64,000 nt of DNA from Armatimonadota bacterium (GTDB lineage: Bacteria; Armatimonadota; Zipacnadia; Zipacnadales; JABUFB01): the NCBI GenBank assembly GCA_013314775.1, contig JABUFB010000015.1, positions 1-64,000 of the forward strand, written 5' to 3'. The notes beneath the pieces were generated by a model. That model was not told the origin of the DNA, did not search any database, and saw only the letters and a list, made by a program, of their open reading frames with translations. A program made the translations under genes and the position numbers. Within the stretch, counting starts at the first letter, position 1. Each line of letters starts with the position of its first letter. Shown one piece after another: positions 33,312-37,154 of the stretch.

Positions 33312-34325
33312 TCACTCTCCGGTCAGCCAGAACTCGGTGACAGCCACGTGCTTCATGTGGGTGCGCTGGTAGGTGTAGATCATGTGCAGGCGCCCGCCGT
33401 GGCCCTGAATGATGGCCGGGTAGGAGAATTCGCCCTCTTCGCTTTCGATAGTCTTGCGGATGGGCCACGTCTTGCCCTCGTCACGGGAGAGAGCGAGGGT
33501 AAGCGGAGTCCGGGCGGTTCGCGAGTCATTGAACAGCAGGGCGAGGTTGCCGTCATCCAAAAGGACCAGGTCCGCGGCAGAGTTGGGATTAGGCAGGCCG
33601 GTGGGTTCGCAGGGAGACCAGGTCTCGCCGCGGTCCGTGGACACACTGCGCCACAGTACGCGCTGATCGATGTTCTCTTCGGGTGCGCCACTGCGCAGGT
33701 ACGCTTCGATCGCACCGTCCCGCCGCACGAACAGCGAGGGCTGGATCACCGCGCACGGGCCTTCCATGAGCCCTGACTGCCGCCAGGTGATGCACTCATC
33801 GTCGCTGATAAGGCAGAAGCCTTTCCAGGTCTGTTCATCGTAGCAGGGCAGAAGCGTGCGGCCGTCATCCAGGCGGATGGCTTTGTTGCGAACCATCCAC
33901 CCCTGGTTCGGGGCCATCTGGACGGCCGGCTCCCACGTGCGTCCTTCGTCCTCGGACTTCATGCTGTAGAGATAGACGCTGTCCCAGCCGATTGGCTCCG
34001 CGCCGGCCTCCTTGCGGGTACCGTCGGCGTTCCACTTCGGGTTATGCTGGGTGGCATAGAAGAGCCAGACATGCCCGTAGTGATCGACGTGCAGGACCGG
34101 ATTGCCGTCGGACCACCCTGGATTATCCACAACCACAGAGACATCCTGCCAGCCATCGATCTCATTCGCCAGGCGGGCGGTGAGAATCGCCGAATCGGGA
34201 TGCCCTTCAAAGGTCCCGGCGTAGAAAGCTGCCAGATACTCGCCGCTTGGGAGTTCAACGATGGTCCCGGCGTGACACCGGGGACGGCCCTGCAAAGTGT
34301 CATAAAGAAATCGCGCTTTGTACAT
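33312..34325 (-). CDS. sialidase-fold (BNR/Asp-box) protein
   Basis: A 337-residue six-bladed propeller-type protein with four Asp-boxes: SEDEGRTW, SDDECITW, STDRGETW and SRDEGKTW. Other sialidase superfamily features are the N-terminal RCHAGTIVELPSGEYLAAFYAG and GNPVLHVDHYGHVWLFY. There is no signal peptide, so it would act in the cytoplasm unless exported otherwise. True sialidases need an Arg triad; Arg residues are present but cannot be assigned. Similar proteins in these phyla occur in glycan-use clusters. ATG 34325 has GAGGA upstream. It is divergent from bioY. Confidence 0.78.
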   Translation of the reverse strand: MYKARFLYDTLQGRPRCHAGTIVELPSGEYLAAFYAGTFEGHPDSAILTARLANEIDGWQDVSVVVDNPGWSDGNPVLHVDHYGHVWLFYATQHNPKWNADGTRKEAGAEPIGWDSVYLYSMKSEDEGRTWEPAVQMAPNQGWMVRNKAIRLDDGRTLLPCYDEQTWKGFCLISDDECITWRQSGLMEGPCAVIQPSLFVRRDGAIEAYLRSGAPEENIDQRVLWRSVSTDRGETWSPCEPTGLPNPNSAADLVLLDDGNLALLFNDSRTARTPLTLALSRDEGKTWPIRKTIESEEGEFSYPAIIQGHGGRLHMIYTYQRTHMKHVAVTEFWLTGE

Positions 34326-34342
34326 CGCCGATTCGTCCTCGC

Positions 34343-34371
34343 TTGTCGCGTGCCACGTAGCATGCTACAAT
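34343..34371 (+). promoter_or_regulatory. bioY promoter with overlapping palindrome
   Basis: -35 TTGTCG (34343-34348), 17 bp, -10 TACAAT (34366-34371). A perfect 12-bp palindrome, GTAGCATGCTAC (34357-34368), overlaps the spacer and -10, where a repressor would block polymerase. It does not look like the long BirA operator. Confidence 0.6.
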
Positions 34372-34466
34372 TCGGCTCCGCGCCGATTGCCGCGCGGGAG
34401 CCCGGAATGGATGCTTGCGGTGACATTATACCCCACAGCGGCGGGCTTGCGAAAGGACGATCCACC

Positions 34467-35036
34467 TTGCTCAGAACCCTCACTGTTTCACTGCGGGCAA
34501 CCGCCATTGAGCGCGGAACCTGGGTCACAGTCGCCGCAGTCTGCGGCCTGGCGCTGGCCACTGCTCTTGCGGCCCAGGTGCGCCTGCATCTGCCATTTTC
34601 GCCGGTTCCTGTGACCCTCCAGACTTTCGTGGTCCTGCTCGGAGGGGCCATTCTGGGCGCCAGAGCGGCAGTAGCGGGGCAGGTTCTGTATCTTGGCCTC
34701 GGCGTCGCGGGTGCGCCGGTGTTTGCAGGCGGGCCCACACTTCTGACTATCCCCACCGCCGGGTATCTCGCGGCCTTTCCGGTGGCGGCGTGGATCGTGG
34801 GTGTTGCGGCGGCCCGTGAGTCCCGGACCGCGCTCCCCCTGGGCCTGCTGGCGGCGACCACGCTGATCTATCTGTTCGGGTCAGCATGGCTCGCGGCTTG
34901 GACAGGGCAGCCTTTCGCGAAAGCGCTGGCGCTCGGTGCGTTGCCCTTCATCCCCGGGGATTTGATGAAACTGGTCGCGGTGATGGGTCTGGCAAGGCTG
35001 GGTCGCAAGGGGTTTCTCGCCTGCAGGGGTGAGTAA
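34467..35036 (+). CDS. bioY: biotin transporter substrate-binding subunit
   Basis: A 189-residue membrane protein, the normal length of BioY, the S component of the ECF-type biotin transporter. Family features: VRLHLPFSPVPVTLQTFVVLLGGAILG near the start, AGPTLLTIPTAGYLAAFPVAAW in the middle (GGPT), and LPFIPGDLMKL near the end. Six helices are visible. It binds biotin in the membrane and works with BioM/BioN or alone; no ATPase or BioN gene is nearby. TTG 34467 is chosen because AAAGGA lies 9 nt upstream and the length then fits; ATG 34407 is an alternative with GGGAG upstream. Confidence 0.9.
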   Translation: MLRTLTVSLRATAIERGTWVTVAAVCGLALATALAAQVRLHLPFSPVPVTLQTFVVLLGGAILGARAAVAGQVLYLGLGVAGAPVFAGGPTLLTIPTAGYLAAFPVAAWIVGVAAARESRTALPLGLLAATTLIYLFGSAWLAAWTGQPFAKALALGALPFIPGDLMKLVAVMGLARLGRKGFLACRGE

Positions 35037-35171
35037 GGGTGCAGCGAGGTGATGAGACGGTCAGTGGCGGCCGATGTGTCCGGCCCATGCGATGAGGTCC
35101 CCGCCCCACGGGTTCAGACGGCGGACGTCATGACTCGGCCGACCAGGTGCCCGCATCGCGCATCACATCGC

Positions 35172-35200
35172 TTGCCGAAAACCCGTTGTCATGCTATATT
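35172..35200 (+). promoter_or_regulatory. sigma70-type promoter of the cimA T-box transcript
   Basis: -35 TTGCCG (35172-35177), 17 bp, -10 TATATT (35195-35200). Transcription would begin near 35207, just ahead of stem I of the T-box, giving a leader of about 360 nt. Confidence 0.7.
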
Positions 35201-35206
35201 ATCGTC

Positions 35207-35510
35207 AATACCAAACGGCAGCGAAGGGGACGAGTACCCGCCGAACGCCCTTTGAGCGAGCCGGGGACGGTGCGAGCCCGGCAGGAAACCCGGCGGGGAA
35301 TATCACCCCTGAGCCGCGGACCCAACGAGACGGACACGAACAGCCGCTCCAGTAGGCTCCGCCGGAGGCTTGCTCCGTTATCAAACAGACGGCATCGGCC
35401 AGCTCGGCCCGTGCCGGACGAGGGGATGCGCAGGTGTTAGCCTGCGCCATCAAGCAGAGTGGTACCGCGAGCCTTCATGGCCCGTCTCTGTCGCAGGGAC
35501 GGGCTTTTGC
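35207..35510 (+). promoter_or_regulatory. T-box riboswitch, isoleucine specifier (AUC)
   Basis: The leader of cimA carries the diagnostic T-box sequence AGAGTGGTACCGCG (35456-35469). Stem I is recognisable: a GA/GA kink (GCGAAGGGG with CCCCTGAGC), an AGTA loop-E segment (35233-35236), CCGCCG pairing with CGGCGG, and the distal AGCGAGCC...GGTGCGAGCCCGG loops. The specifier loop reads GAAT-ATC-A with ATC at 35302-35304, which pairs with tRNA-Ile(GAU). The UGGU bulge of the T-box would pair with the ACCA end. A terminator stem GCCCGTC.../GGACGGGC with TTTTGCTTT ends at 35510. Uncharged tRNA-Ile should favour antitermination and cimA expression. Confidence 0.9.
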
Positions 35511-35567
35511 TTTGCGGTCCAACTTTCACCCCGCGCGCTGCCGAACACAGGAGCAAGGGGAAACACA

Positions 35568-37154
35568 ATGAGCAGACAGGTACTGATCTACGACACCACG
35601 CTGCGCGACGGTTGTCAGGGCGAAGGAGTGGCCTTTAGCGTCGAAGACAAGCTGCGGGTAGCCCACAGACTGGATGACCTCGGCGTGGCATTCATCGAGG
35701 GCGGCTGGCCCAACGAGACCAACCCGCGAGACCGCGAGTTTTTCCAGCGCGCGAAAGGGGATACCTGGAAGCATGCGAAGATAGCGGCTTTCGGCAGCAC
35801 CCGGCGCGGCGGGATCAAGCCCGAGGAAGACTCCAATCTCAATGAGCTTATCGCTTCGGGCGCGCCGGTCGTCACCATCTTTGGCAAGTCCTGGGACATG
35901 CACGCGACCGATGTCCTGCGGGTGAGTCTTGAAGAGAACCTGGCAATGATCCAGGACTCGGTGGCTTATCTCAAAGCTCATGTGCCTCAGGTTATCTTCG
36001 ACGGCGAGCATTTTTTCGATGGCTATCTCGCCAACCCCGAGTACGCGATGAAGACCCTGGAGGCCGCGGTTCGCGGTGGCGCTGATGCTCTGTGTCTCTG
36101 CGACACCAACGGCGGCAGGCTGCCCCACCAGATCGCGGAGATTTGCCAGGTCGTGCTGAAGCAGGCGTCCGTGCCGGTAGGCATTCACTGTCACAATGAC
36201 AGCGGCACAGCGGTGGCCAGCACACTCGCGGCGGTCATCGCCGGTTGCTCCCAGGTGCAAGGGACGATGAACGGCTATGGAGAGCGGGCCGGGAATGCCA
36301 ACCTATGCGAGGTCATCCCGAACCTCGAGCTCAAACTGGACATCCGTTGCCTGCCCGAGGGCAGTCTGCGGGATCTCAAGCCTGCCTCGCGGTACATAAG
36401 TGAACTGGCGAACTTGCCGCATTACCACCGCCAGGCATACGTGGGGGACTCGGCTTTCGCGCACAAAGGCGGCATGCATGTGAACGCGGTGCTCAAACGG
36501 GCGGATTCTTTCGAGCATATCGATCCGGAACTGGTGGGCAATGAACGGCGGATTCTGGTGAGCGATGTAGCCGGCAGCAGCACGGTGGTCAGCAAGCTGC
36601 GCAAGCTCTGGCCCGACCTGGACCGCCGCGACCCGCTGGTGGGCGAAGTGCTCACGAAGATGAAGGACCTGGAAAATCGCGGGTACGAGTTCGAGGCCGC
36701 GGAGGGGTCCTTCGCGCTGCTTGCCATGGAACTAAGGGGCGAGCGCAAGGACCTGTTCACGCTCCACGGTTTCCGGGTCTTGTCCGGCAAACATGAAGAA
36801 GGCACTGAGCCTTTCGCCGAGGCGACCGTGGAAATTGACGTGGATGGCGAACATTTCCACACCGCTGCCAAAGGAACCGGCCCGGTGCACGCGCTTGACC
36901 TTGCTCTGCGCAAGGCTCTGCGCGAGAAGTACCCGAAAGTGGATCAGCTTGAGCTGATCGACTACAAGGTGCGCGTGCTGGAGGGCACCCACGGCACGGC
37001 AACCGGCGTCCGCGTCATCATCCTGACCACCGACGGCAAGGAGACATGGGGCACGGTGGGGGTGCACGAGAACATTATCGAGGCAAGCTGGCAGGCGCTG
37101 GTGGACAGTATCGCCTACGGCCTGCAGCGAAACGGCGGACACAAGCCGCAGTAG
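35568..37154 (+). CDS. cimA: (R)-citramalate synthase, CimA type
   Basis: A 528-residue enzyme condensing pyruvate with acetyl-CoA to citramalate, the first step of the threonine-independent isoleucine route. The HMGL-like barrel starts with IYDTTLRDGCQGEG and has GIHCHNDSGTAVA (metal-binding HxH) and the GYGERAGNANL loop. Residues from about 400 onward form the LeuA-type allosteric dimer domain (GTGPVHALDLALRKAL, GTAT). The N-terminal DTTLRDGxQ with VxFSxEDK is typical of the long CimA/LeuA2 group rather than LeuA. The isoleucine T-box upstream independently supports citramalate over isopropylmalate synthase. ATG 35568 has AAGGGG 7 nt upstream. Confidence 0.92.
   Translation: MSRQVLIYDTTLRDGCQGEGVAFSVEDKLRVAHRLDDLGVAFIEGGWPNETNPRDREFFQRAKGDTWKHAKIAAFGSTRRGGIKPEEDSNLNELIASGAPVVTIFGKSWDMHATDVLRVSLEENLAMIQDSVAYLKAHVPQVIFDGEHFFDGYLANPEYAMKTLEAAVRGGADALCLCDTNGGRLPHQIAEICQVVLKQASVPVGIHCHNDSGTAVASTLAAVIAGCSQVQGTMNGYGERAGNANLCEVIPNLELKLDIRCLPEGSLRDLKPASRYISELANLPHYHRQAYVGDSAFAHKGGMHVNAVLKRADSFEHIDPELVGNERRILVSDVAGSSTVVSKLRKLWPDLDRRDPLVGEVLTKMKDLENRGYEFEAAEGSFALLAMELRGERKDLFTLHGFRVLSGKHEEGTEPFAEATVEIDVDGEHFHTAAKGTGPVHALDLALRKALREKYPKVDQLELIDYKVRVLEGTHGTATGVRVIILTTDGKETWGTVGVHENIIEASWQALVDSIAYGLQRNGGHKPQ

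What the first reader, a model, noticed from the sequence alone, without database searches (positions are those of the whole stretch)
35172..35567. Isoleucine-specific T-box riboswitch controlling citramalate synthase
Seen: the T-box sequence AGAGTGGTACCGCG, a stem I with AGTA/GAA loop E, a specifier ATC followed by A, a UGGU bulge able to pair with ACCA, and a terminator with a T-run, all placed between a good promoter and cimA. Known: T-boxes are frequent in Firmicutes, Actinobacteria and a few other phyla, and usually control synthetases or amino acid genes. Inference: this organism regulates the pyruvate-derived isoleucine pathway by tRNA-Ile charging. The codon independently argues that the gene is CimA, not LeuA. 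The ileS gene of the same genome lacks a T-box.
Basis: partly seen in the sequence, partly recalled or inferred. Interest (0 to 1): 0.75.

Follow-up and report, generated by a model that had tools for sequence, protein, structure and literature searches.

The report
Isoleucine T-box leader before cimA
A stretch of RNA in front of an isoleucine-making gene in an uncultured Armatimonadota bacterium is a genuine T-box switch that senses uncharged isoleucine tRNA; this is a well-known type of control, here found as a consistent set of switches in a poorly studied phylum.

Summary
The finding is right. Window 35212-35492 (+) is a canonical class I (transcriptional) T-box leader. Rfam RF00230 gives 83.7 bits, E = 8e-19; this is under the curated 93-bit cut-off, so a default scan misses it. 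The specifier AUC (35302-35304) is followed by A, and UGGU (35460-35463) can pair with the ACCA end of this genome's own tRNA-Ile(GAU). The antiterminator's 3' strand is also the 5' strand of an intrinsic terminator. The gene is cimA by TIGR00977 (722 bits).

Of 43 Armatimonadota cimA leaders with a T-box, 40 carry AUC, and the helices covary. The paralogue leuA of the same genome has its own T-box with a Leu (CUC) specifier; valS and ilvD have Val (GUC) and pheS has Phe (UUC).

Ile T-boxes also precede ilvC-cimA in several Firmicutes contigs, so the logic is not unique. This is a new member of a known kind, in the lineage of Ca. Zipacnadia/WS1. The least ordinary detail is an extra covarying hairpin (35391-35415) between stems II and III, seen in cimA and leuA leaders but generally not in Val leaders. 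Regulation itself was not tested.

The parts
35172..35200 (+). sigma-70-type promoter, TTGCCG-17-TATATT with TG before the second hexamer
   Evidence: consensus scan, 1 site found, 0.1 expected
35212..35492 (+). T-box leader (RF00230), full model length
   Evidence: 83.7 bits, E 8.3e-19
35218..35314 (+). stem I with AGUA/GAA specifier-loop motif (35233-35236 and 35298-35300)
   Evidence: Rfam alignment; helices covary among relatives
35302..35304 (+). specifier AUC (Ile), followed by A35305
   Evidence: Rfam alignment; AUC in 40 of 43 homologous leaders
35317..35386 (+). stem II and stem IIA with CCGUUA
   Evidence: Rfam alignment
35391..35415 (+). extra hairpin between stem IIA and stem III, absent from the Rfam consensus
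   Evidence: 87% canonical cells against 28-42% when slid; 42 double-change cells
35425..35450 (+). stem III
   Evidence: Rfam alignment; all 7 pairs show double changes
35456..35489 (+). antiterminator: T-box sequence AGAGUGGUACCGCG and CCCGUCUCU, with UGGU bulge 35460-35463
   Evidence: Rfam alignment; 96-100% canonical pairs
35480..35513 (+). intrinsic terminator (11-bp hairpin 35480-35504, tail TTTTGCTTT); its 5' strand overlaps the antiterminator 3' strand
   Evidence: 96% canonical pairs, 5 pairs with double changes
35568..37154 (+). cimA, (R)-citramalate synthase
   Evidence: TIGR00977 equivalog, 722.6 bits, E 2e-217

Best explanation
The 5' leader of cimA is a class I, transcription-attenuating T-box riboswitch specific for tRNA-Ile(GAU). 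Shown by sequence: the full T-box anatomy, an AUC specifier, a UGGU bulge complementary to the ACCA end of the genome's own tRNA-Ile, and mutually exclusive antiterminator and terminator. Inferred: when isoleucine is short, uncharged tRNA-Ile pairs with AUC and UGGU, stabilises the antiterminator and lets RNA polymerase reach cimA. When tRNA-Ile is charged the terminator forms and transcription stops about 55 nt before the start codon. It is one of a set in this genome (valS and ilvD on Val, cimA on Ile, leuA on Leu, pheS on Phe).
For: RF00230 full-length match. Five T-boxes in the genome, with specifiers that agree with the genes they precede: GUC-valS, GUC-ilvD, AUC-cimA, CUC-leuA, UUC-pheS (leuA confirmed). 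Across 61 Armatimonadota genomes, 54 have a T-box. Forty of 43 cimA leaders with a T-box read AUC; 16 leuA leaders read CUC/CUG; 23 ilvD and 17 valS leaders read GUC. Structure: 26 of 47 pairs have changes on both sides and 86% of cells are canonical, against 35-47% when partners are slid by 1-3 nt. The terminator is kept at 96% canonical with 5 doubly changed pairs. tRNA-Ile(GAU) ends in ACCA. A promoter is present upstream.
Against: The score is below Rfam's gathering cut-off. No expression or binding data exist. In the thermodynamic fold the terminator (-21.5 kcal/mol) is stronger than the antiterminator alone (-14.0), which is expected for a T-box but does not show switching. A threonine dehydratase-like gene means the citramalate route is not proven to be the main one.
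Confidence: 0.95

Rival explanations
1. A Leu- or Val-specific T-box (different specifier register) acting on a leuA-like gene.
For: CimA and LeuA are paralogues, and leuA T-boxes are common in this phylum; other registers of the specifier loop would read UAU or UCA.
Against: The codon next to the conserved purine is AUC here and in 40 of 43 relatives, while the base before it varies. The gene passes the cimA equivalog cut-off and fails the leuA ones. The true leuA has its own T-box with CUC.
Confidence: 0.02
2. A degenerate T-box relic that no longer switches.
For: Score under the Rfam cut-off.
Against: All key motifs are intact, helices and terminator covary across many genera, and the high G+C (67%) probably explains part of the lower score against an A+U-rich model.
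Confidence: 0.02
3. A T-box acting on translation (class II) rather than transcription.
For: Such T-boxes exist in Actinobacteria (PMC7778990).
Against: A strong intrinsic terminator with T-rich tail overlaps the antiterminator, and the Shine-Dalgarno region (about 35549-35560) lies outside both structures.
Confidence: 0.01

Closest known systems
T-box leader, Rfam RF00230 (class I, transcriptional)
   Same: Stem I with loop E and specifier, AG-bulge region, stem II, IIA with CCGUUA, stem III, T-box bulge UGGN, antiterminator/terminator switch.
   Different: G+C-rich; scores 83.7 against a 93-bit cut-off; carries an extra hairpin between stem IIA and stem III.
Ile T-box before ilvC-cimA in Firmicutes contigs (L044, L056, L062, L065, L076)
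   Same: A T-box whose specifier loop reads AUC, upstream of a cimA gene on the same strand (codon read by eye from the sequence).
   Different: There ilvC lies between T-box and cimA, and the leader is about 237-243 nt, too short for the extra hairpin; here the T-box is directly before cimA.
T-box before leuA in Geobacter and Pelobacter (PMC2494555)
   Same: T-box control of a member of the same enzyme superfamily outside Firmicutes.
   Different: That paper names the gene leuA; here the gene is cimA and the codon is Ile, while a separate leuA T-box with CUC is present in the same genome.

Membership tests
T-box riboswitch (RF00230) | Match to the covariance model over its whole length | tested here: met
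   Model 1-219, E 8.3e-19; below the curated 93-bit cut-off
T-box riboswitch (RF00230) | Conserved T-box sequence with UGGN bulge | tested here: met
   AGAGUGGUACCGCG at 35456-35469
T-box riboswitch (RF00230) | Specifier codon in the stem I internal loop that matches the downstream gene | tested here: met
   AUC at 35302-35304; cimA; conserved in relatives
T-box riboswitch (RF00230) | UGGN complementary to the discriminator and CCA of the matching tRNA | tested here: met
   UGGU against ...ACCA of tRNA-Ile(GAU)
T-box riboswitch (RF00230) | Mutually exclusive antiterminator and terminator | tested here: met
   35481-35489 is shared by both helices; terminator conserved
T-box riboswitch (RF00230) | Read-through stimulated by uncharged cognate tRNA | not testable with these tools
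   Needs in-vitro transcription or an in-vivo reporter
Citramalate synthase CimA (TIGR00977) | Score over the equivalog cut-off and better than leuA models | tested here: met
   722.6 bits against 450; best leuA model 269 against a cut-off of 517

The most novel reading that the evidence does not exclude
Armatimonadota have a lineage-specific T-box subtype: Ile and Leu leaders carry an extra, covarying hairpin between stem IIA and stem III that Val leaders generally lack, possibly adding tertiary contacts or helping the stem II region to dock on these tRNAs.
Probability: 0.3. Interest if true: 0.4.

Novelty: new member of a known kind. Interest (0 to 1): 0.3.

Why it matters
It extends a clean, gene-by-gene T-box regulon (Val, Ile, Leu, Phe) to a little-studied phylum for which I found no T-box paper in the library searched. 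It also shows how a specifier codon can separate the paralogues cimA and leuA in genome annotation: AUC goes with cimA and CUC/CUG with leuA, with very few exceptions.

Tried and rejected
A default Rfam scan of the window gave nothing because the score is below the cut-off; the E-value mode was needed. Automatic extraction of specifiers with simple patterns mis-picked some leaders; a stricter pattern and reading by eye resolved most. A few non-cimA leaders remain unassigned: two leuA, several ilvB, and some whose target was not identified. A Guanidine-III match inside the leader (13.9 bits, E 1.7) is chance. Literature searches for T-box with Armatimonadetes or Armatimonadota found no paper, and T-box with citramalate only one, which does not treat this lineage. 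Papers of subscription journals, including a large comparative T-box study I remember from 2008, are not in the library, so absence of an earlier report is not shown.

Full report
What is there. The intergenic region 35037-35567 lies between a BioY-like open frame and cimA. It holds one promoter-like site, TTGCCG-17-TATATT at 35172-35200, then a T-box leader at 35212-35492 that matches RF00230 from first to last model position with 83.7 bits, E = 8.3e-19. Rfam's curated cut-off is 93 bits, so the default scan reports nothing. The same genome has five T-boxes at E < 1e-10, two of them over the cut-off. Bases 35481-35489 belong both to the antiterminator and to the terminator, so the two exclude each other.

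The gene. The protein from 35568 is citramalate synthase by TIGR00977 (722.6 bits, cut-off 450) and far below the leuA cut-offs. The genome has one such gene. Its paralogue leuA (over the TIGR00973 cut-off) is on another contig and has its own T-box.

The organism. Other members of the class coincide in contig length with 'Candidatus Zipacnadia' MAGs, and a WS1 MAG appears among the nearest relatives. The window is therefore from Armatimonadota, in or near Ca. Zipacnadia.

The regulon. Specifiers in this genome, read from Rfam alignments, are GUC before valS, GUC before ilvD, AUC before cimA, CUC before leuA and UUC before pheS. The tRNA-Ile(GAU) of the genome ends in ACCA, complementary to UGGU. 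In one genome of the same order and one of another part of the phylum ileS does have an AUC T-box (L260, L285), so T-box control of ileS varies within the phylum.

Conservation. T-boxes occur in 54 of 61 genomes of the phylum searched. Of 57 cimA loci examined, 43 have a T-box core upstream; these cover nearly all of the class plus one genome from elsewhere in the phylum (G055). Forty carry AUC; one carries ACC (L158) and two have an altered specifier loop (L167, L170). The specifier follows the target gene: 16 leuA leaders read CUC or CUG, 23 ilvD and 17 valS leaders read GUC. Mapping the window's Rfam structure onto an alignment of 33 cimA leaders gives 86% canonical cells and 26 of 47 pairs with changes on both sides, against 35-47% canonical when partners are slid by one to three positions. 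The terminator gives 96% canonical with 5 doubly changed pairs.

Known relatives. In a sample of 19 Firmicutes-labelled cimA loci, five have a T-box over the Rfam cut-off about 1.8-2 kb upstream, followed by ilvC and then cimA; their specifier loops read AUC by eye. Ile T-box control of a citramalate pathway operon is thus found outside this phylum too. Wels et al. 2008 (PMC2494555) report T-boxes in Firmicutes, Actinobacteria, Chloroflexi, Deinococcus and two Proteobacteria (leuA). TBDB (PMC7778990) describes the discriminator and specifier rules used here. I found no paper on T-boxes in Armatimonadota in the library, but the library is incomplete.

What is unusual. Between stem IIA (CCGUUA) and stem III the cimA leaders have an extra hairpin (35391-35415 in the window) that is not in the Rfam consensus. 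It covaries: 87% canonical against 28-42% when slid, 42 double-change cells. leuA leaders are lengthened at the same place (median distance from CCGUUA to the core 79 nt, against 84 in cimA and 46-52 in valS and ilvD), and in the leuA leader of this genome a similar hairpin is visible. This is a structural variant of interest to T-box specialists but does not change the mechanism.

Verdict. The finding is real and correctly interpreted. It is a known kind of regulator in a less-studied phylum, well supported by comparison, untested by experiment.

Noticed in passing
window 35391-35415; same place in other cimA and leuA leaders: Extra covarying hairpin between stem IIA and stem III, present in Ile and Leu T-boxes of this lineage and generally lacking in Val T-boxes.
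   Followed up: partly
   Followed up: no
L167 and L170 (G007, G012): Two cimA leaders of one genus lack the AGUA/GAA motif: the region pairs as GAGGC/GCCUC and AUC is followed by U. The T-box core and terminator are intact.
   Followed up: partly
L260 (G019) and L285 (G059): ileS under an AUC T-box in other Armatimonadota, while the window's own ileS has none.
   Followed up: partly
L144 4223-4316: Fluoride riboswitch over the Rfam cut-off in a relative's cimA locus (39.4 bits), on the strand opposite to cimA.
   Followed up: no
G000:C13:230005-231090 (own genome, outside the window): Threonine dehydratase-like gene over the TIGR01127 cut-off, so a second possible source of 2-oxobutyrate exists in this genome.
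   Followed up: no
window 34044-35036 (+): Upstream open frame with a BioY-like (biotin transporter) C-terminal half by eye; no NCBIfam match.
   Followed up: no
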